The notes under the pieces were generated by a model. It did not search any database. It was not told the origin of the DNA and worked only from the letters and a program-made list of their open reading frames with translations. From Blastococcus sp. TBT05-19 (GTDB taxonomy: Bacteria; Actinomycetota; Actinomycetes; Mycobacteriales; Geodermatophilaceae), in assembly GCF_003319095.1 (NCBI RefSeq), contig NZ_QOHI01000001.1, positions 124,001 through 188,000 of the forward strand: DNA of 64,000 nucleotides. Direction: 5' to 3'. Numbering within the stretch: the first letter of the stretch is position 1; every line of letters begins with the position of its first letter. Positions 6,652 to 53,482 of this stretch are shown one piece after another. The position numbers were made by a program, and so were the translations under genes.

Positions 6652-9600
6652 GTGCTGGGGGTGAAGACCTGGCTCGATAGCTGGCCGGTGTACCGCCAGC
6701 TCACCGGCTCGGACCCGCTGGGGCGCGGCAAGGCCGCCCGCAGCAAGGGCACCGAGGCCACCGTGTCGCGCACCGCGACCGCTGATCGCGTCGTCAAGAG
6801 CGTCTGCCCCTTCTGCGCCGTGGGCTGCGGCCAGAACGTGTACGTCCAGGACGAGAAGATCACGCAGATCGAGGGCGACCCCGATTCGCCGATCAGCCGC
6901 GGCCGGCTCTGCCCCAAGGGCAGCGCCAGCAAGCAGCTGGTCACCAGCCCCACCCGTGTCACCACGGTCAAGTACCGCCGTCCCTTCGGGACGGACTGGG
7001 AGGACCTGGACCTCGACACGGCGATGGAGATGATCGCCGACCGCGTGCTGGAAGCCCGTCGCAAGGGGTGGCAGCAGGTCGACGGCGGCAAGCGGGTCAA
7101 CCGCACCATGGGGCTCGCCAGCCTCGGAGGGGCCACCCTCGACAACGAGGAGAACTACCTCATGAAGAAGCTGTACAGCGCCCTGGGCGCTGTACAGATC
7201 GAGAACCAAGCACGCATATAGCACTCTGCGACGGTGCCCGGTCTGGGTGCCTCGTTCGGTCGTGGCGGTGCCACGAACTTCCTGGAAGACCTCGCGAACT
7301 CCGACTGCATCGTCATAGAGGGTTCGAACATGGCCGAGTGCCACCCGGTGGGCTTCCAGTGGGTCGGTGAGGCCAAGGCGCGCGGCGCCAAGATCATCCA
7401 CATCGATCCGCGCTTCACGCGGACCAGCGCGATCGCCGACCTGCACGTGCCGCTGCGCATGGGCACCGACATCGCGTTCCTCGGCGGCCTGATCAACTAC
7501 GTGCTGAGCAACGACCTGTACTTCAAGGAGTACGTCGCGGCCTACACCAACGCCGCCGCCCTGGTCAGCGAGGAGTTCGTCGACTCCGAGGACCTCGACG
7601 GCCTGTTCTCCGGCTTCGACGCGGAGAACCGCGTGTACGACCAGAAGAGCTGGCAGTACCAGCCGGAGGAGCCGCCGAACTCGGGCTCGGACGACCCGGG
7701 CGAGGCCGCCGAGCAGGAGCGCACCGACCAGCACCCGGACGTCAAGCACTCCGACCGGGCGCAGGCGGCCGGGAGCGGCGGGCCGACGATCGCCTCGAAG
7801 CCCAAGCGCGACGACACCCTGCAGCACCCCCGCTCGGTGTTCCAGATCCTCAAGCGGCACTACGCCCGCTACACGCCGGAGATGGTGGCCGAGGTCTGCG
7901 GCATCGAGCCCGCGGTCTTCGAGCAGGTCGCGAAGTGGGTCACGAGCAACAGCAACCGCGACCGGACGACGGCGTGGGTGTACTCCGTGGGCTGGACGCA
8001 GCACAGCGTGGGCGCGCAGTACATCCGCACCTGCTCGATCCTGCAGACGCTGCTGGGCAACATCGGCCGCCCCGGCGGCGGGATCCTCGCGCTGCGCGGG
8101 CACGCCAGCATCCAGGGCTCGACCGACATCCCGACGCTGTTCAACCTGCTGCCCGGCTACCTGCCGATGCCGCACGCGCGCCAGCACGGCACGCTCGAGG
8201 AGTACGTCGCCGACGCCGCCGGCAAGGCCGGGTTCTGGGGCAACAAGCGGGCGTACATGACGAGCCTGCTCAAGGCCTGGTGGGGCGAGCACGCGACGCC
8301 CGAGAACGACTACTGCTTCGACTACCTGCCCAAGATCAACGGCGACCACAGCTCCTACCGCACGATCGCCGACATGATCGAGGGCAAGGTCTCGGGCTAC
8401 TTCCTGGTCGGTGAGAACCCGACCGTGGGGCACCCGAACGGCCGGATGAACCGGTTCGGCCTGGCCAACCTCGACTGGCTGGTGGTCCGCGACCTGCAGA
8501 TGATCGAGTCGGCGACCTTCTGGAAGGAGTCGCCGGAGATCGAGACCGGCGAGCTCGCGCCGGAGACGATCGCCACCGAGGTCTTCTTCATGCCCGCGGC
8601 CACGCACGTGGAGAAGGAAGGCACCTTCACCCAGACCCAGCGGGTGCTGCAGTGGCGGCACAAGGCGGTCGAGCCGCCGAACGACGCCCGCAGCGACCTG
8701 TGGTTCTACTACCACCTCGGCCGGATCCTGCGGGAGCGGCTGAAGGACTCCACCGACCCGCGGGACCGCCCGCTGCTCCAGCTCACCTGGGACTACCCGG
8801 TGGAGGGCGAGACCGCCGACCCCAGCGCCGACGCCGTGCTGCGCGAGATCAACGGCTTCGGTCCGGACGGCGAGTTGCTGAACTCCTACATGCAGATGAA
8901 GGACGACGGCTCGACCAGCGGCGGGTGCTGGATCTACTGCGGTGTCTACGCCGACGGCGTGAACCAGGCCGACCGCCGCAAGCCGGGCAAGGAGCAGGGA
9001 CCCGTCGCCTCGGAGTGGGGCTGGGCCTGGCCGCTCAACCGCCGGATGCTCTACAACCGCGCGTCGGCCGACCCCGACGGCAAGCCGTGGAGCGAGCGCA
9101 AGAAGTACGTGTGGTGGGACGAGGCCGCCGGTGAGTGGACCGGCCTGGACATCCCGGACTTCGAGAAGAACAAGCGCCCGGACTACGTGCCGCCCGACGG
9201 CGCCAAGGCGCAGGCCGCGCTGGCCGGCAGCGACCCGTTCGTCATGCAGGGCGACGGCAAGGCGTGGCTGTTCGCGCCCGGGGGCGTGGTCGACGGGCCG
9301 CTGCCGACGCACTACGAGCCGGTCGAGTCCGTCGTCGAGAACGCCCTGTACAAGCAGCAGGCGAACCCGACGGTGGAGCGCATCCCCGGCCCGTGGAACC
9401 GGGAGAACCCCTCGATGAGCGAGGTCTTCCCGTTCCAGGTGACCACCTACCGGCTGACCGAGCACCACACCGCCGGCGGGATGAGCCGCACGCTGCCCTA
9501 CCTCGCCGAGCTCCAGCCGGAGTTCTTCGTCGAGGTGAGCCCGGAGCTGGCCGAGCTGCGGGGGCTGACCAACGGCGAGTTCGCCACCCTGGTCAGCGCT

Positions 9601-9954
9601 CGGACGGCGATCGAGGCGAAGGTGCTGGTCACCGAGCGGATGCGGCCCATCCGGCTGCGCAACGGGCAGGTCGTGCACCAGATCGGCATGCCCTACCACT
9701 GGTCCTACGCCGGCATCTCCACCGGGGACTCGGCCAACGACCTGCTGGGCATCTCGCTCGACCCGAACACCCACATCCAGGAGGACAAGGTCAGCACCGC
9801 CGACATCGTGGCCGGCCGCCGGCCGCGCGGGCCGGGGCTGATCGACTTCGTGGAGGAGTACCGCCGCCGGGCCGGGGTGGAGTCCGGGAGGGTCGGCAAG
9901 AACGGCCGCGACCCGGTCGCCGCCGACGCCGGAGAGGGCTCGACCATCACATGA
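6652..9954 (+). CDS. fdhA: Formate dehydrogenase catalytic subunit, selenoprotein with UAG-encoded Sec
   Basis: A molybdopterin (bis-MGD) formate dehydrogenase that oxidises formate to CO2. The N-terminal [4Fe-4S] motif is CPFCAVGCGQN, closed by RLCPKG. The frame is interrupted only at 7219-7221 by TAG, within ENQARI-stop-HSATVPGLG. This is exactly where formate dehydrogenases of this type carry the catalytic selenocysteine (residue 190 from this start). Both sides are fully conserved and co-linear, so the full product is 1100 residues. An acidic, low-complexity insertion (about residues 343-380) is like other actinobacterial homologues. The C-terminal molydopterin-dinucleotide-binding domain follows YRLTEHHTAGGMS. 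The start is GTG 6652 (giving LGVKTW); GTG 6661 is an alternative. It is followed by fdhB and an nrfD-like gene. No Sec machinery genes are in the window. Confidence 0.93.
7219..7254 (+). promoter_or_regulatory. UAG selenocysteine codon and bacterial SECIS-like hairpin
   Basis: TAG at 7219-7221 is followed after seven bases by a hairpin: CGA (7229-7231), one unpaired C (7232) and GGTGCCC (7233-7239) pair with GGGTGCC (7245-7251) and TCG (7252-7254), including two G-T pairs. The five-base loop 7240-7244 is GGTCT. Bacterial SECIS elements lie immediately after the Sec codon and are bound by SelB; the Escherichia coli fdhF element has the same GGUCU loop and a bulged base in the stem. This supports programmed recoding of the UAG rather than a nonsense mutation. 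The pairing was found by eye and not computed. Confidence 0.82.
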
Positions 9955-9979: not shown

Positions 9980-11047
9980 GTGACCTCGGTCAGCTCCGCC
10001 AGCCCGGGCCTCCGTGGCCTCCGCGACGTCAAGAACCGGCTCTTCGGGCCGCTGCCCGACGTCGCGCAGGAGGCCGGGTACGAGCCCGACCACCCCAAGC
10101 GGGTCGGCTTCTTCACCGACACCTCGGTCTGCATCGGCTGCAAGGCCTGCGAGGTGGCCTGCAAGGAGTGGAACACGCTCCCGATGGACGACTCGCACGG
10201 CCAGCGGGACGCCCTGGGCCTGTCGGGCATGTCCTACGACAACACCGGGCAGCTCGGCGCCAACTCGTGGCGGCACGTGGCGTTCATCGAGCAGTCCCGC
10301 GCCGTGGACCTGCCGATGCCGACCTTCGGCCGCCCCGGCGACGACCGGCACGACCACGGCCCCTCGCCCGCGAACGCCGGCGACCCGATCAGCCTGGCCA
10401 ACGCGCAGCAGAGCGTGCTCAACGCCGAGGCGCTCTCGGAGTTCGACCCGCAGACCGGCCAGACGGGCGCGGACAAGCAGATCCGCTGGCTGATGAGCTC
10501 CGACGTGTGCAAGCACTGCACGCACGCCGGTTGCCTCGACGTGTGCCCCACCGGTGCGCTGTTCCGCAGCGAGTTCGGAACCGTCGTCGTGCAGGGCGAC
10601 ATCTGCAACGGCTGCGGCTACTGCGTCGCGGCCTGCCCCTACGGCGTCATCGACCAGCGCAAGGACGACGGCCGGGTCTTCAAGTGCACGATGTGCTACG
10701 ACCGGCTGACCGACGGCCTGCAGCCGGCGTGCGCCACCGCGTGCCCGACGACGTCGATCCAGTTCGGCGACCTCGACGAGCTGCAGGCGCGGGCCGACGC
10801 CCGCCTGGCGACGCTCAAGGCGCAGGGCGTGGAGACCGCGCGGCTGTACGGGCGCGATGAGAACGACGGCGTCGGCGGCGACGGGGCCTTCTTCCTGCTG
10901 CTCGACGAGCCGGAGGTCTACGGCCTGCCGCCGGACCCGATCGTGACCACCCGGGACCTGCCGGCGATGTGGAAGGCGGCCGGCAAGGCTGCGGTGATGA
11001 TGATCGGGGTCGCGGCCACCGCCGTCCTCGGTTCGCGGAGGCGCTGA
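9980..11047 (+). CDS. fdhB: Formate dehydrogenase iron-sulfur (beta) subunit
   Basis: A 355-residue electron-transfer subunit that carries electrons from the catalytic subunit towards the membrane. It has four ferredoxin-type cysteine clusters: CIGCKACEVACKEW near residue 51, CKHCTHAGCLDVCPTG near 178, CNGCGYCVAACPYG near 211, and CTMC with CATACPTTS near 236-258, enough for four [4Fe-4S] centres. A loop of about 80 residues between the first and second clusters is larger than in E. coli FdnH. A C-terminal hydrophobic stretch (AAVMMIGVAATAVLG) could anchor it in the membrane. The start is GTG 9980, with a strong GAGGAGG site just upstream and 25 bases after fdhA. A single base separates its stop from the next gene. 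Confidence 0.93.
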   Translation: MTSVSSASPGLRGLRDVKNRLFGPLPDVAQEAGYEPDHPKRVGFFTDTSVCIGCKACEVACKEWNTLPMDDSHGQRDALGLSGMSYDNTGQLGANSWRHVAFIEQSRAVDLPMPTFGRPGDDRHDHGPSPANAGDPISLANAQQSVLNAEALSEFDPQTGQTGADKQIRWLMSSDVCKHCTHAGCLDVCPTGALFRSEFGTVVVQGDICNGCGYCVAACPYGVIDQRKDDGRVFKCTMCYDRLTDGLQPACATACPTTSIQFGDLDELQARADARLATLKAQGVETARLYGRDENDGVGGDGAFFLLLDEPEVYGLPPDPIVTTRDLPAMWKAAGKAAVMMIGVAATAVLGSRRR

Positions 11048-11048
11048 C

Positions 11049-12092
11049 ATGACCGGCGGGATCACCAGCCCGGATGCGGGGTGGCGCCAGGCCGACCGCG
11101 GCCCTTCGACGCAGCACTCGACCAAGAAGCGCCGCAAGCGCGGCGGCGGTCGGGGTCGCGGCGAGGTCGCGATGGTCGACGACGTCGAGTTCACCTCGTA
11201 CTACGGCCGGCAGATCGTCAAGACGCCGGTGTGGAAGTCGCCGGACGTGCCGCTCTACCTGTTCCTGGGCGGCGCGGCCGGGTCCTCGTCGATCCTCGCG
11301 GCCATCGCCGACCTGACCGACCGGCCGAAGCTGACCAGGGTGGGCCGCTACACCGCGGGCGTCGGCTCGATGCTCTCGGTGGTCGCCCTGGTGCACGACC
11401 TCGGCCGCCCGGAGCGGTTCCTGCACATGCTGCGGGTGTTCAAGCTGACGTCCCCGCTGTCGGTGGGCACCTACATCCTGTCGCCGTTCAGCGCGGCGGC
11501 CGGAGCGACGGCGGCCGTGGAGCTGCTGGGCTGGTTCCCCCGGCTCAAGCGCTTCGGGGGAGTGGTGTCGGCGATCTTCGGCGGACCGCTGGCCACCTAC
11601 ACCGGCGTGCTGCTGGCCAACACCGCCGTGCCGTCGTGGCACGCGGCCTACAAGCAGCTGCCCTACGTCTTCGGTGGCTCCGCGATGGCGGCCGGCGGCG
11701 GCATCTCGATGATCTTCGTGCCGGTCGACGAGGCCGGGCCGGCCCGCAAGATGGCCGTCGCCGGAGCGGCGATCGAGCTCGCCGTCGTGCACAAGGTGGA
11801 GCACGACCACGGCATCCTCAGCGAGCCGTTCCACGAGGGCCGGCCGGGGAAGCTCATGCAGGCGGCGAAGACGGCGACCGCCGCGGGCGCCGGACTCACC
11901 GTCCTGGCCGGGCGCACCCGCATCGGCGCCATTGCGTCAGGAACGCTTCTCGCCGCGGGATCGCTGCTCACCCGCTTCGGCGTCTTCGAGGCCGGCATCG
12001 CCAGCACCAAGGATCCGAAGTACGTCGTCGTCCCGCAGCGCGAGCGGCTCGAGGCCGGCACGAACGAGCACGCCTCCACGGTCACCCGCTGA
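11049..12092 (+). CDS. nrfD: NrfD/PsrC-type membrane subunit of formate dehydrogenase
   Basis: A 347-residue polytopic membrane protein, the likely quinone-reactive anchor of the formate dehydrogenase. After a basic N-terminal tail of about 50 residues (KKRRKRGGGRGRG) come about eight hydrophobic segments, with LYLFLGGAAGSSS near residue 72 and LVHDLGRPERFLHMLRVFK near 115. This last segment, with its acidic/arginine loop, is characteristic of the NrfD family. SPFSAAAGA and TGVLLANTAVPSWH follow. It begins one base after fdhB stops and is followed by a hairpin terminator, so it ends the three-gene operon. Unlike E. coli FdnI it is not a haem b cytochrome of four helices. Confidence 0.88.
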   Translation: MTGGITSPDAGWRQADRGPSTQHSTKKRRKRGGGRGRGEVAMVDDVEFTSYYGRQIVKTPVWKSPDVPLYLFLGGAAGSSSILAAIADLTDRPKLTRVGRYTAGVGSMLSVVALVHDLGRPERFLHMLRVFKLTSPLSVGTYILSPFSAAAGATAAVELLGWFPRLKRFGGVVSAIFGGPLATYTGVLLANTAVPSWHAAYKQLPYVFGGSAMAAGGGISMIFVPVDEAGPARKMAVAGAAIELAVVHKVEHDHGILSEPFHEGRPGKLMQAAKTATAAGAGLTVLAGRTRIGAIASGTLLAAGSLLTRFGVFEAGIASTKDPKYVVVPQRERLEAGTNEHASTVTR

Positions 12093-12130: not shown

Positions 12131-12925
12131 TCAGATGAGTGCGCTGTCGACTCTCTGCTGCCAGGCGAGCTCGTCGATGACAGCGCGCTTCTCGACGTCG
12201 TCGAAGCGCACCTTCTTCCAGCGGCCCTCCGAGGCTGATGCACCGTAGGCGCCGCTGCGGTGCCACTCGCCCTTGCGGGTCAGGAACCACGACCGACCGT
12301 GGTAGTCGGCACCCTCGAATGCCCAGCCGGCGAGCTTGCCCATCCCGGCGCGCCGCTTCTCGACCTCGCGGGCGTAGGGGAGCAGGTAGAGGCAGGTGTC
12401 GGTGAACTCGGCGGCGTTCAGGCCGCGCAGGACGTGCACCGCGGAGCGGACCTCCTGCTCGGTGCGCTTCTCGTCGCGGGCGTAGAGGATCCAGACGGCG
12501 TCTTCGGCGGCCAGGTCGAGCAGCTCGGTGCGCTGCCGGTGGCGCTCGGCCTCGGCGGCGGCCTTCTCCTCCGCGCGGCGGCGCTCCTCGGCGAGGGCGG
12601 CGGCGCGGGAGCGCATGCGGGCGTTGGCCAGGTCGCGGTCGCAGACCCGCCAGCCCTGCCAGAGGGCGGAGTGGTCAGCGCAGACGGCGCGGGTGCACTC
12701 GGTGCACTCGCCGATGGCCGGGTCGCCGCAGCGGCAGAGCGCGGCCTCGTCGTCGGCACGGGTCTGGATGTAGATGGTGCTGCAGCGCTTCGTCTCGGCC
12801 GGCTCTGCCGTCGGAACGGCCGGTCCGCCGACGAGTTCGCCGACACGGACGACGGCGTCGCAGCGCCAGTAACCGGGAAGGATCTGCGTGCGTGCGTCCG
12901 TCGCCCCGCAGGTGGGACAAGGCAT
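12131..12925 (-). CDS. Hypothetical protein with N-terminal zinc-binding motifs and coiled coil
   Basis: A 264-residue protein of unknown function. The N-terminus MPCPTCGATD with a following WRCDA resembles a zinc ribbon. Around residues 84-110 the pattern CRCG...CTEC...CADHSALW resembles a B-box-like zinc module. Residues about 125-155 are an Arg/Glu/Ala-rich coiled coil. The C-terminal half (SAVHVLRGLNAAEF..., YHGRSWFLTRKGEWHRSG) looks globular and resembles no family I can name. It starts at ATG 12925. It stands alone between the formate dehydrogenase operon and the polysaccharide cluster and is probably a core-genome gene. Confidence 0.75.
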   Translation of the reverse strand: MPCPTCGATDARTQILPGYWRCDAVVRVGELVGGPAVPTAEPAETKRCSTIYIQTRADDEAALCRCGDPAIGECTECTRAVCADHSALWQGWRVCDRDLANARMRSRAAALAEERRRAEEKAAAEAERHRQRTELLDLAAEDAVWILYARDEKRTEQEVRSAVHVLRGLNAAEFTDTCLYLLPYAREVEKRRAGMGKLAGWAFEGADYHGRSWFLTRKGEWHRSGAYGASASEGRWKKVRFDDVEKRAVIDELAWQQRVDSALI

Positions 12926-50653: not shown

Positions 50654-52042
50654 GTGGATCTGACCGAGGCAGCACAGCGCATCTTCAAGTACCACTGGGT
50701 CCTCATCCTCGTGACCACCCTCGTCGGACTGAGCATCCCGCTCCTGCTCGCGCAGGCGCAGGAGGACGAGTACCGGGCCAGCGCACGCATCGTCATGGGC
50801 TCCACCGACCCCCGCGACGGCGAGGAGGCCACCAGCCAGGCCGACGCGGCGCTGGGTGTGGCCACGAGCCCCGGCGTGGTCGGCGACGCGCTGACCGAGA
50901 CCGGCGTGCAGCGGGACGCCGACGAGGTCGCCGGGCGGGTGCGGGTCGAGCCCGTCGGCACCTCCGGAGTGCTCGAGCTGGCGGTCACCGACCCCGATCC
51001 CGCGGCGTCCGCATCCCTCGCCAACGCGCTGGCCGATGCCATCGTGGAGCGGCGCACCGAGGCCGTCCTCGGTGACACCGAGCGGCTCCTCGCAGCCACC
51101 GACGAGCAGATCACCGAGCTCACCGCGACGGTCACCGCGATCCAGGAGGAGGCGGCCGCGGCGGCCCGCCAGGAGAGCCTGGCGATCTCGCGGGGGCTGA
51201 CCCCCGACTCCACGCTCGACGCGATCGAGCTGCGCAACGACCAGGCGGTCGACCAGCTCAACCGCGCCCAGGACCAGCGCCAGCTGCTGGCGCAGACCCT
51301 GGCCGAGACGGTGCGGCCCGAGGTGATCGACCGGGCGCCGGAGCAGGGCAGCCTCGTCGACACCTCCCTCCCGGCCCGGCTCGCCGTGGGCGCTCTCCTA
51401 GGGCTCCTGCTCGGGATCGCCATCGCGGCGGCGCTGGAGGCGTGGCGTCCGACGCTGAACGGGCACACCCTGGCCCGTCACTTCGGGGTGCCGCTGCTCG
51501 GGCACCTGCCGCGCCTGCCCGGCCGCGGGGCCGGCATCGACGACCCCCGGCTCACCACCTACGTCTCGCTCGCGGCCGACAGGGCAGGGGTGCGGTCCTA
51601 CGAGCTCGTGCAGGTCGGCCCGGCGACCGACGTCTCGCCCCTGGCCGAGGCGCTCGCCCGCGGCGACGGCGACCACGACGTGCTCCCCGCCGAGGAAGGT
51701 GCGTCGAACGGGGCGCTGGTGCTCTCCACCAAGTCCCACGGCGGTGCCGGCGTCATCGTGGTGGCGCCGGAGAAGACCAGGTCCACGTGGCTCGAGGACC
51801 TCGAGCGGCACGTGCAGCTGACCCGGCAGCCGGTCATCGGCGTCGTCACCTACCGGAAGCGGGCAGCGGACCGATCCGGCACCGCGGGCCAGGACGTGCC
51901 CCGGACGGGGGCGAACGGCGGCGCGAAGGCGAACGGCGGCGCGAAGGGGCGCGGTAGCACGAAGGCGGACGGCGGCGGAACCGGACGTCCCGAGCCGGGC
52001 ACCAAGCCCGACGCGACGTCCTCCGCCGCCACCGGGTCCTAG
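50654..52042 (+). CDS. Wzz-like chain-length protein with P-loop-less kinase-like domain
   Basis: A 462-residue protein. Two transmembrane helices (WVLILVTTLVGLSIPLLLA near residue 17, and LAVGALLGLLLGIAIAAALEAW near 240) flank a coiled extracytoplasmic domain, the Wzz/CapA plan. Cytoplasmic residues about 265-410 resemble the tyrosine autokinase (CpsD/Wzc) fold (LARHFGVPLLGHLP, VIVVAPEKTRSTWLEDLERHV, PVIGVVTYRKR), but the Walker A loop is absent: that position reads VQVGPATDVSPLAEAL. Kinase activity is therefore unlikely. The tail holds short repeats of NGGAK and Gly/Lys. It starts at GTG 50654 and stops nine bases before the Wzy-like gene. Confidence 0.83.
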   Translation: MDLTEAAQRIFKYHWVLILVTTLVGLSIPLLLAQAQEDEYRASARIVMGSTDPRDGEEATSQADAALGVATSPGVVGDALTETGVQRDADEVAGRVRVEPVGTSGVLELAVTDPDPAASASLANALADAIVERRTEAVLGDTERLLAATDEQITELTATVTAIQEEAAAAARQESLAISRGLTPDSTLDAIELRNDQAVDQLNRAQDQRQLLAQTLAETVRPEVIDRAPEQGSLVDTSLPARLAVGALLGLLLGIAIAAALEAWRPTLNGHTLARHFGVPLLGHLPRLPGRGAGIDDPRLTTYVSLAADRAGVRSYELVQVGPATDVSPLAEALARGDGDHDVLPAEEGASNGALVLSTKSHGGAGVIVVAPEKTRSTWLEDLERHVQLTRQPVIGVVTYRKRAADRSGTAGQDVPRTGANGGAKANGGAKGRGSTKADGGGTGRPEPGTKPDATSSAATGS

Positions 52043-52051
52043 GACCGGGTC

Positions 52052-53482
52052 GTGGCTACGCACCGCGCCGCACGAGGGAAGCGGGGGGTGGATACCGCCG
52101 ACCAGTGGGAGGGCGGTCAGCCGCCCGGCGGTCGTCGGCCCCTGAGGTCGCCGGACACCGAGCCGGGAACCGGTGTGCTCGCCGTCCTGGGGCTGGCGAT
52201 CGCCTCGATGCCGCTGGTCGCCCCCAAGGCACCGGGCAACGCGGCACCGATCGATGCGCTCATGGCTCTCGCCCTGCTCGCGGTGTTCGCCTGGGCGCTG
52301 CGCAACCGGGTGCTCATCCGGGTCCCCTACGTCGTGCCGATGGCGGGTCTGGTGCTGACCGGCTTGACGGCCGCGCTGATGAGCCTGGCGCCGACCAAGG
52401 GCGCCATCGCGGTCGCGCAGGAGATCTTCCTGCTGCTCTGGTGCACCGCCATCGTCGCCGTCTGCCGGACGCCGCGGATCCTGTTCCAGCTCATGCGTGT
52501 GTGGGTGCTCAGCGCCACCGCGTGGGCCGCGCTGCTCGTGGCCGCGGTCACCGTGGGGTTCGAGCCCATCGTCGGGGCGACCGAGGGCGGCGGGGCGCGG
52601 GCCCGGCTCTTCTTCGACCACCCCAACATGGCCGGCAACTTCTTCATGGTCACGGTCTTCATCGCGGTGGCTGCGGGCTATCCGACCCGGCGCTCCGCGC
52701 GCGCCGGCGCCGTCGGCGTCCTCCTGCTGGCGCTGCTCATGACCGGGTCCAACGCCGCACTGCTGTCCCTGCTCGGCGGAGCCCTGGTCGCGCTGTTCCT
52801 GCACGTGCGCGCGCGGTCCGGCATGGTCGCGGCGACCGCGACAGCGCTCTGCCTGGCCGGCGGGCTGGCCGCCGGCTGGTTCGTCATCGGTCAGCCGCTG
52901 CTGGCAGCGGCCCAGCAGAGCGACAACCCGCTGCTGCGCTACTCGCTGGGCCGTGGTGAGGCCAGCGCCGAGGGGCGCGTGGACCTGTTCGCCTCGCAGT
53001 TCGAGCTCTACGAGCGCGGCAACCTGTTCGGCATCGGCCCGGCCGGCACCAAGGAGGCGCTCGGCGCATCGGCCGCCCAGACGGTCAAGGAGGCGCACAA
53101 CGACTACCTGGCCACGCTCGTGGAGCGCGGCCCCCTGGGCCTGCTGGCGCTGATGGCGCTGGTCGCGGTGATCGCCTACCGGTCCGGGGCCATCACCCGG
53201 CGTCCGTTGCCGCCCGGGCTGGCCGCCGCGGTGCCGGTCCCGGCGGCGTTGGTCGGGCTGTGCGCGACCTTCGCCCTCACGGCGGTGACGCACGAGATCC
53301 TGCACTACCGGTGGTTCTGGACGACCCTCGGTCTCCTCGCCGCCGTCCACCTCCTGAACAGCCGGGCGCCGGGCGCCTTCGCCGACGACGACGTGATCGA
53401 GACGCCGGGACCGTCCACCTCGGGCAGCGGGATCGGCGCCCTCGCACGACGTCCGGCGAGCGCTTTCTCCAGTGCCGGCTGA
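52052..53482 (+). CDS. O-antigen ligase/Wzy-like polymerase, second copy
   Basis: A 476-residue polytopic membrane protein with about eleven helices. The periplasmic-loop region SAEGRVDLFASQFELYERGNLFGIGPAGTKEAL, followed by KEAHNDYLATLVERGPLGLLALM, carries the Wzy_C hallmarks (R near the loop start, G-I-G-P-x-G, H-N-x-Y-L). It is preceded by a soluble N-terminal tail of about 40 residues. It would polymerise or ligate the repeat units flipped by the protein encoded next, whose gene overlaps this one by 11 bases. It starts at GTG 52052. Confidence 0.85.
   Translation: MATHRAARGKRGVDTADQWEGGQPPGGRRPLRSPDTEPGTGVLAVLGLAIASMPLVAPKAPGNAAPIDALMALALLAVFAWALRNRVLIRVPYVVPMAGLVLTGLTAALMSLAPTKGAIAVAQEIFLLLWCTAIVAVCRTPRILFQLMRVWVLSATAWAALLVAAVTVGFEPIVGATEGGGARARLFFDHPNMAGNFFMVTVFIAVAAGYPTRRSARAGAVGVLLLALLMTGSNAALLSLLGGALVALFLHVRARSGMVAATATALCLAGGLAAGWFVIGQPLLAAAQQSDNPLLRYSLGRGEASAEGRVDLFASQFELYERGNLFGIGPAGTKEALGASAAQTVKEAHNDYLATLVERGPLGLLALMALVAVIAYRSGAITRRPLPPGLAAAVPVPAALVGLCATFALTAVTHEILHYRWFWTTLGLLAAVHLLNSRAPGAFADDDVIETPGPSTSGSGIGALARRPASAFSSAG

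What the first reader, a model, noticed from the sequence alone, without database searches (positions are those of the whole stretch)
7219..7254. Selenocysteine encoded by UAG in formate dehydrogenase, with adjacent SECIS-like hairpin
The catalytic Sec position of the formate dehydrogenase (ENQARI-x-HSATVPG) is TAG, not TGA. The flanks are fully conserved, the frame resumes at once, and a hairpin with GGTCT apical loop and one bulged base follows, as in SelB-recognised SECIS elements. UAG-directed Sec insertion through a tRNA-Sec with a CUA anticodon has been reported in Geodermatophilus and Blastococcus (Mukai and co-workers, 2016). This window appears to be another natural case, where a gene caller would split fdhA into two pieces.
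Basis: partly seen in the sequence, partly recalled or inferred. Interest (0 to 1): 0.88.

Follow-up and report, generated by a model that had tools for sequence, protein, structure and literature searches.

The report
UAG-encoded selenocysteine in formate dehydrogenase
This bacterium appears to use the stop signal UAG, instead of the usual UGA, to insert the rare amino acid selenocysteine into formate dehydrogenase, a known oddity of its bacterial family that is extended here by a family survey and by one relative that seems to use both stop signals.

Summary
Confirmed, and known in kind. fdhA (6661-9954) carries an in-frame TAG at 7219-7221 (Sec187) followed by a hairpin with a GGUCU loop. 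The genome has one tRNA-Sec, anticodon CUA, beside selD, selA and selB, and a second TAG-interrupted gene (AhpC/TSA-like). Of 112 family genomes 108 have a strong tRNA-Sec: 100 CUA only, 7 UCA only, 1 both. A strict pattern finds the fdhA site with TAG in 73 genomes and with TGA or Cys in none. The upper helix of the hairpin covaries at wobble positions across TAG and TGA homologs. UAG-Sec in this family is in print since 2016, so the window is a new member of a known kind. Two things go further. (1) The codon before the TAG is the rare AUA at 74 of 74 sites; at 83 Sec-UGA sites of the class it is AUU, AUA or GUU. (2) Geodermatophilus marinus carries the CUA tRNA-Sec with UAG genes and also, on a low-GC stretch among transposase genes, a UCA tRNA-Sec 0.3 kb from a UGA-Sec AhpD-like gene: apparently two Sec codons in one genome. 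There is no protein evidence, and misassembly of that contig is not excluded.

The parts
6661..9954 (+). fdhA, formate dehydrogenase catalytic subunit, GTG start, TGA stop, one internal TAG read as Sec187
   Evidence: NF041513.1 1914.5 bits over residues 3-1069 of the read-through; start and residue number
7219..7221 (+). UAG selenocysteine codon
   Evidence: TAG at this site in 73 of 112 family genomes; TGA or Cys codon in the like pattern in 0 of 112
7216..7218 (+). AUA isoleucine codon directly before the Sec codon, invariant in the TAG homologs found
   Evidence: 74 of 74 sites; Ile elsewhere in the same frames ATC 880, ATA 24, ATT 5
7233..7251 (+). SECIS-like hairpin, conserved part: helix 7233-7239/7245-7251, loop GGUCU 7240-7244
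   Evidence: folds; covariation; loop GGTCT in 13 of 13 distinct TAG sequences
7228..7255 (+). possible lower helix 7228-7231/7252-7255 with bulged C7232
   Evidence: in short folds only; not conserved among homologs
9980..11047 (+). fdhB-like iron-sulfur subunit
   Evidence: TIGR01582 FDH-beta 178 bits, below its 334.7 cut-off
11049..12092 (+). NrfD-like membrane subunit
   Evidence: PF14589 40.8 bits, PF03916 39.7 bits, both over cut-off

Best explanation
The TAG at 7219-7221 is a selenocysteine codon. A tRNA-Sec with anticodon CUA (C7:1163010-1163101) is charged with serine, converted to Sec by SelA with selenophosphate from SelD, and delivered by SelB, which binds the GGUCU-loop hairpin just 3' of the codon. 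Sec becomes the molybdenum ligand of FdhA. UAG elsewhere still ends genes, because SelB acts only where a suitable hairpin follows. Shown here: codon, hairpin and its covariation, tRNA, selA/selB/selD genes, a second UAG gene, agreement of codon and anticodon across the family. Inferred from the known bacterial pathway: charging, delivery, incorporation, catalysis, and the restriction to sites with a hairpin.
For: Single tRNA-Sec with CTA anticodon (65.8 bits, gathering 47), followed by selA (TIGR00474, 421.7 bits) and selB (TIGR00475, 282.6 bits) and preceded by divergent selD (TIGR00476, 389.1 bits). TAG at the fdhA Sec site in 73 of 112 family genomes; no TGA or Cys codon there in any of the 112 by a like pattern. 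UGSC-family genes in the family: 72 of 95 listed matches hold one TAG, 23 no stop, none a TGA (my count). Own AhpC/TSA-like gene with one TAG. Wobble-to-wobble covariation in the hairpin.
Against: No protein or selenium-labelling data for this strain. Hairpin stability alone is not significant, the lower helix is not conserved, and the hairpin of the own AhpC-like gene does not stand out (z -0.10; 51% of synonymous shuffles as stable). The patterns are strict: 39 of 112 genomes match neither. The UCA-tRNA genera (g5-g7) matched neither, so within the family the UGA side rests on the tRNA only. pylS was not searched for.
Confidence: 0.96

Rival explanations
1. The TAG is a nonsense mutation or sequencing error and fdhA is a pseudogene or two genes.
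For: By the standard code the ORF is split at 7221.
Against: Same TAG in 73 of 112 genomes of the family, protein conserved on both sides, wobble covariation in the hairpin, matching tRNA.
Confidence: 0.01
2. UAG is read as another amino acid, e.g. pyrrolysine (ARAGORN's label for the tRNA) or a suppressor's amino acid.
For: ARAGORN calls the CUA tRNA 'tRNA-Pyl'.
Against: The tRNA matches the tRNA-Sec model over all 91 positions at 65.8 bits and sits beside selA and selB. It differs from a UCA tRNA-Sec of the same family (G072) at 9 of 92 positions: two in the anticodon, two forming the stem pair next to the loop (U-A to C-G), five elsewhere. The site aligns with Sec-UGA or Cys in homologs of the class. 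pylS was not searched for.
Confidence: 0.02
3. UAG-Sec is encoded but hardly used: most ribosomes stop at UAG and Sec insertion is vestigial.
For: UAG seems to be still used as a terminator: of 45 heuristically chosen own ORFs 39 end in TGA and 6 in TAG.
Against: selB found in 108 of 112 family genomes, 96 of 96 good ones; codon and hairpin are maintained across genera.
Confidence: 0.01

Closest known systems
UAG-Sec system of Geodermatophilus and Blastococcus (Mukai et al. 2016; paper not held, known from passages of PMC5330540 and PMC10778597, and recall)
   Same: CUA tRNA-Sec, UAG at the Sec site of formate dehydrogenase; UAG in UGSC genes of relatives; same family
   Different: Another strain, without a UGSC gene; here with a census of 112 genomes, SECIS covariation, an invariant AUA before UAG, and a relative that carries both Sec codons
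UAG-Sec AhpC of Blastococcus saxobsidens DD2 (PMC5330540, passage)
   Same: AhpC-type gene with one in-frame TAG and a CUA tRNA-Sec; the window's genome has one too (C10:478685-479341)
   Different: Sequences not compared; the paper's figure is not held
UGA-Sec formate dehydrogenase of other genomes of the class
   Same: Same protein site and hairpin position; GGUCU loop in 13 of 25 distinct TGA sequences, AGUCU in 8 and AGUUU in 4
   Different: TGA instead of TAG; codon before it AUU, AUA or GUU
AhpD-like CxxU selenoprotein, TIGR01926 (family table of PMC13188914, passage)
   Same: The G. marinus UGA gene has this motif and matches TIGR01926
   Different: In G. marinus it lies beside a UCA tRNA-Sec in a genome whose other Sec genes found here use UAG

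Membership tests
Bacterial selenocysteine decoding | tRNA-Sec gene | tested here: met
   RF01852 65.8 bits, G000:C7:1163010-1163101
Bacterial selenocysteine decoding | SelA, SelB, SelD | tested here: met
   TIGR00474, TIGR00475, TIGR00476 over cut-off
Bacterial selenocysteine decoding | hairpin (SECIS) directly 3' of the Sec codon | tested here: met
   upper helix and loop: folds; covariation; lower helix not conserved
Bacterial selenocysteine decoding | Sec in the protein | not testable with these tools
   needs mass spectrometry or 75Se labelling
UAG-Sec variant (Geodermatophilaceae) | tRNA-Sec with anticodon CUA | tested here: met
   no UCA tRNA-Sec among the nine matches
UAG-Sec variant (Geodermatophilaceae) | UAG at Sec sites of selenoprotein genes | tested here: met
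   fdhA and AhpC-like; no UGSC gene in the own genome
Pyrrolysine system | tRNA-Pyl fold | tested here: not met
   the match kept at that locus is tRNA-Sec, 65.8 bits (one lower-scoring clan match over the two loci was left out by the tool); ARAGORN's label is tRNA-Pyl
Pyrrolysine system | pylS and pylBCD | not tested
   not searched for

The most novel reading that the evidence does not exclude
One relative, Geodermatophilus marinus LHW52908 (G058), reads two different stop codons as selenocysteine: UAG through the family's CUA tRNA-Sec (fdhA, UGSC) and UGA through a horizontally acquired cassette of a UCA tRNA-Sec and an AhpD-like UGA-Sec gene, both served by the one SelB found. The Sec meaning would then be portable as a tRNA-plus-gene cassette, and SelB would be indifferent to the anticodon in nature.
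Probability: 0.5. Interest if true: 0.75.

Novelty: new member of a known kind. Interest (0 to 1): 0.45.

Why it matters
The window itself adds one more organism to a known code variant. The survey makes the history of the switch testable: UCA tRNA-Sec in three genera of the family, CUA in the other nine. A genome holding both tRNAs would show how a second Sec codon can arrive, and offers a natural test of whether SelB and SelA discriminate between anticodons. The invariant AUA before UAG suggests a 5' context rule for Sec insertion, perhaps in competition with release factor 1, that can be tested with a reporter.

Tried and rejected
selB of the own genome ends in TAG, which suggested a feedback on the Sec codon; among 30 selB loci (of 108 genomes with selB) 13 end in TAG and 17 in TGA, so it is not conserved. 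The first two-sequence alignment used a wrong offset and was not used. Free energy of the hairpins was tried as evidence and is weak for all genes tried: window fdhA, own AhpC-like, G. marinus AhpD-like (z -0.49). The lower helix with the bulged base was tested on 37 homologs and is not conserved. A scan of own DNA (window, L009, L250) for other TAG-interrupted frames gave two more places in the window, TAG at 52040 and 61530. The first lies between two full-length ORFs (462 and 476 aa; the second matches PF04932, O-antigen ligase), read as an ordinary terminator. The second lies in a frame antisense to an 818-aa ORF. The own CMD-family gene (PF02627) has no stop. NCBIfam gave no family for part of the AhpC-like protein; Pfam did. 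A paper search on upstream codon context found nothing. A plasmid search with the AhpD-like protein gave only matches below 60% identity, the listed ones 28-34%.

Full report
What is there. The window's fdhA runs 6661-9954 (GTG start, TGA stop) with one in-frame TAG at 7219-7221, codon 187. Read with TAG as U it matches NCBIfam NF041513.1 (formate_DH_Act) over residues 3-1069 at 1914.5 bits against a cut-off of 1400. fdhB-like (9980-11047) and NrfD-like (11049-12092) genes follow. ARAGORN finds no tRNA in the window and Rfam no match at gathering score.

Machinery in the same genome. Rfam's tRNA-Sec model gives nine matches in G000, two over cut-off. The better one (65.8 bits, C7:1163010-1163101) has anticodon CTA; ARAGORN labels it tRNA-Pyl. 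The other (51.8 bits) is a tRNA-Ser with anticodon TGA, and the weaker seven are tRNAs for Ser, Ser, Tyr, Leu, Leu, Met and Met. Around the CTA tRNA lie selD (opposite strand), selA and selB, each over its curated cut-off. So there is one tRNA-Sec, with CUA, and no UCA one was found.

A second UAG gene. Of six PF00578 matches in the own genome one, C10:478730-479011, holds one TAG. The frame is open from ATG at C10:478685 to TGA at 479339-479341 apart from this TAG, the protein reads GDW-TAG-PYCCAQ, and Pfam AhpC-TSA matches at 44.5 bits, cut-off 26. A hairpin with a GUC loop follows, but its energy is not above shuffles (z -0.10; 51% of synonymous shuffles as stable). PMC5330540 (passage) reports an AhpC with Sec-TAG in Blastococcus saxobsidens. 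The own genome gave no match to the UGSC family, and its one CMD-family match has no stop. Other selenoprotein families were not searched for.

Family census. Of 112 genomes of the family, 108 have a tRNA-Sec match of at least 60 bits (my count); the four without (G067, G071, G097, G098) are 72-82% complete, and G097 and G098 nevertheless have the TAG fdhA site. Anticodons were read from loci and from a pattern that prints the match (100 genomes). Result: 100 genomes CUA only, 7 UCA only (G066, G068, G069, G070, G072, G073, G074, all in genera g5-g7), 1 with both (G058). G036, 88% complete, has two different CUA copies. selB was found in 108 of 112. SelB of CUA genomes with a full-length match is 76-93% identical to the own one; SelB of the six UCA genomes with a match is 54-67% (G070 and G073 partial). 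This fits a single switch, but no tree was built.

Codon and anticodon agree. The fdhA site with TAG occurs in 73 of 112 genomes, 74 sites. A like pattern with TGN or TTN in place of TAG occurs in 0 of 112. Both patterns are strict; 39 genomes, the UCA genera among them, match neither, so the UCA genera give no UGA gene to set against their tRNA. In UGSC-family genes 72 of 95 listed matches hold exactly one TAG, 23 no stop, none a TGA (my count). In a sample of 394 genomes of the class, 108 fdhA sites were found in 104 genomes: 83 TGA, 23 Cys, 2 TAG, the two TAG being the own genome and a congener.

The hairpin. Sequences came from the window, 30 of the 74 TAG sites and 30 loci of the class sample. 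Three Cys sites were dropped, leaving 58 rows, 38 of them distinct (13 TAG, 25 TGA); one TGA sequence with a deviant downstream part (L213) was left out of the alignment of 37. The upper helix is paired in 96.9% of cells, with 24 double-sided changes against 5.6 in shuffles (0 of 500) and a covariation score of 0.299 against 0.116 (0 of 500); sliding the helix by 1 to 3 columns destroys this. The strongest pair, columns 21 and 33, joins two wobble positions (Val and Gly codons) and shows CG, UA, GU, UG and GC with no break in 37. Against over-reading: relatedness can inflate such shuffles, as the tool says; two of seven pairs have changes on both sides, one varies on one side only, four never vary; counts of pairs and of pair types do not exceed shuffles (197 and 117 of 500). 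The lower helix with the bulged C7232 is not conserved: its four pairs fail in 12, 8, 29 and 2 of 37. The loop is GGUCU in 13 of 13 distinct TAG sequences and 13 of 25 TGA ones; the others have AGUCU (8) or AGUUU (4).

The codon before the Sec codon. All 74 TAG sites have ATA before the TAG (the pattern allowed any ATN). Elsewhere in the same frames of 31 rows (own genome counted twice, as window and L097) Ile is ATC 880, ATA 24, ATT 5. Within -900 to +1200 of the TAG, ATA at -3 is in all 31 rows and no other in-frame position exceeds 15. In the class sample the 83 TGA sites have ATT 56, ATA 24, GTT 3, while the 23 Cys sites have GTC 12 or GTG 11 (that pattern allowed ATN and GTN). So in this sample A or T precedes the Sec codon, and always A before UAG. 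This is special to fdhA: the own AhpC-like gene has TGG and a UGSC gene of G058 has GAC before the TAG. I have no tested explanation; an effect on release-factor competition or on local mRNA structure is a guess.

A genome with two Sec codons. G058 is Geodermatophilus sp. LHW52908, in the taxonomy now G. marinus: its contig C17 has the length of NZ_QVQH01000024.1 (69,133) and the first 6,154 bases are identical. It has the family's CUA tRNA-Sec on contig C11 with SelB and an ORF at the place of selA (not scanned), fdhA with TAG and a UGSC gene with TAG. On C17 it also has a tRNA-Sec with UCA (81.8 bits, L040:1173-1263, minus strand), and 0.3 kb away an ORF (L040:1579-2157) with one in-frame TGA at NRCFY-TGA-MESHAEF, TIGR01926 peroxidase-related, 112.6 bits, cut-off 81.8. 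Of the 67 loci fetched from genome contigs (G058's own included), 64 show the motif: 63 have TGA there, one (L140) TGC; three partial loci show none. The seven-pair hairpin after the TGA has loop GUU in 58 of 58 distinct sequences and its pairs are kept in 56 to 58 of 58; G058 keeps it whole. This is conservation, not covariation, and its energy in G058 is ordinary (z -0.49). Of these 67 loci 60 were scanned for tRNAs, within up to 4 kb on either side; only G058's has a tRNA-Sec. In the family only the G058 hit has a stop; the other matches are 30-40% identical and uninterrupted. AhpD-like CxxU, TIGR01926, is a listed selenoprotein family (PMC13188914, passage). The stretch from 1 to 6 kb is 59-65% GC against 77% for the C11 stretch, and the first 15 kb hold five transposase-type genes. 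The contig is not foreign as a whole: part of L040:18142-20000 matches five other genomes of the genus at 89-91% over 707-739 bases. L040 has no N. G058 showed one SelB at E up to 1e-60. The reading is a horizontally acquired UGA-Sec cassette in a UAG-Sec genome. Against it: a chimeric join at a transposase gene is possible, the donor is unknown, and expression and charging are unknown.

Literature. UAG-Sec in this family and its tRNA are in print: PMC5330540 (passages) and PMC10778597 (passages) cite Mukai et al. 2016, which is not held; that the 2016 work used 75Se labelling or mass spectrometry is recall. PMC5330540 reports genomes with several tRNA-Sec genes; the passages I saw do not mention two different anticodons in one genome. 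My searches showed no such case in the titles and abstract beginnings listed (15 of 86 papers, 10 of 77, all in the others); the library lacks most subscription papers, so this is weak.

Verdict. Observation confirmed, interpretation supported, window ordinary within its family; novelty lies in the invariant AUA and, outside the window, in G. marinus.

Noticed in passing
L040:1173-1263 (-) and L040:1579-2157 (+), G058 contig C17 (NZ_QVQH01000024.1): UCA tRNA-Sec next to an AhpD-like UGA-Sec gene in Geodermatophilus marinus, which also has the CUA tRNA-Sec and UAG selenoprotein genes.
   Followed up: partly
window 7216-7218 and 74 family sites: Rare AUA codon invariant directly before the UAG Sec codon of fdhA; at the Sec-UGA sites sampled in the class the codon ends in A or T, at the Cys sites in C or G.
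   Followed up: partly
L250:3685-4341 (G000:C10:478685-479341): Second TAG-interrupted gene of the own genome, AhpC/TSA-like with motif U-P-Y-C-C.
   Followed up: yes
L009:11479-13224: Own selB ends in TAG; 13 of 30 family selB loci read do, the other 17 in TGA.
   Followed up: yes
window 50654-53482: Two full-length ORFs in one frame separated by TAG and nine bases; the second matches O-antigen ligase. Read as an ordinary terminator.
   Followed up: partly
G036 C25:205-296 and C168:20822-20913: Two different CUA tRNA-Sec copies in one incomplete genome; may be contamination or a duplicate.
   Followed up: no
window 12131-12925 (-): 264-aa ORF with CxxC pairs after the fdh genes, no NCBIfam or Pfam family.
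   Followed up: no
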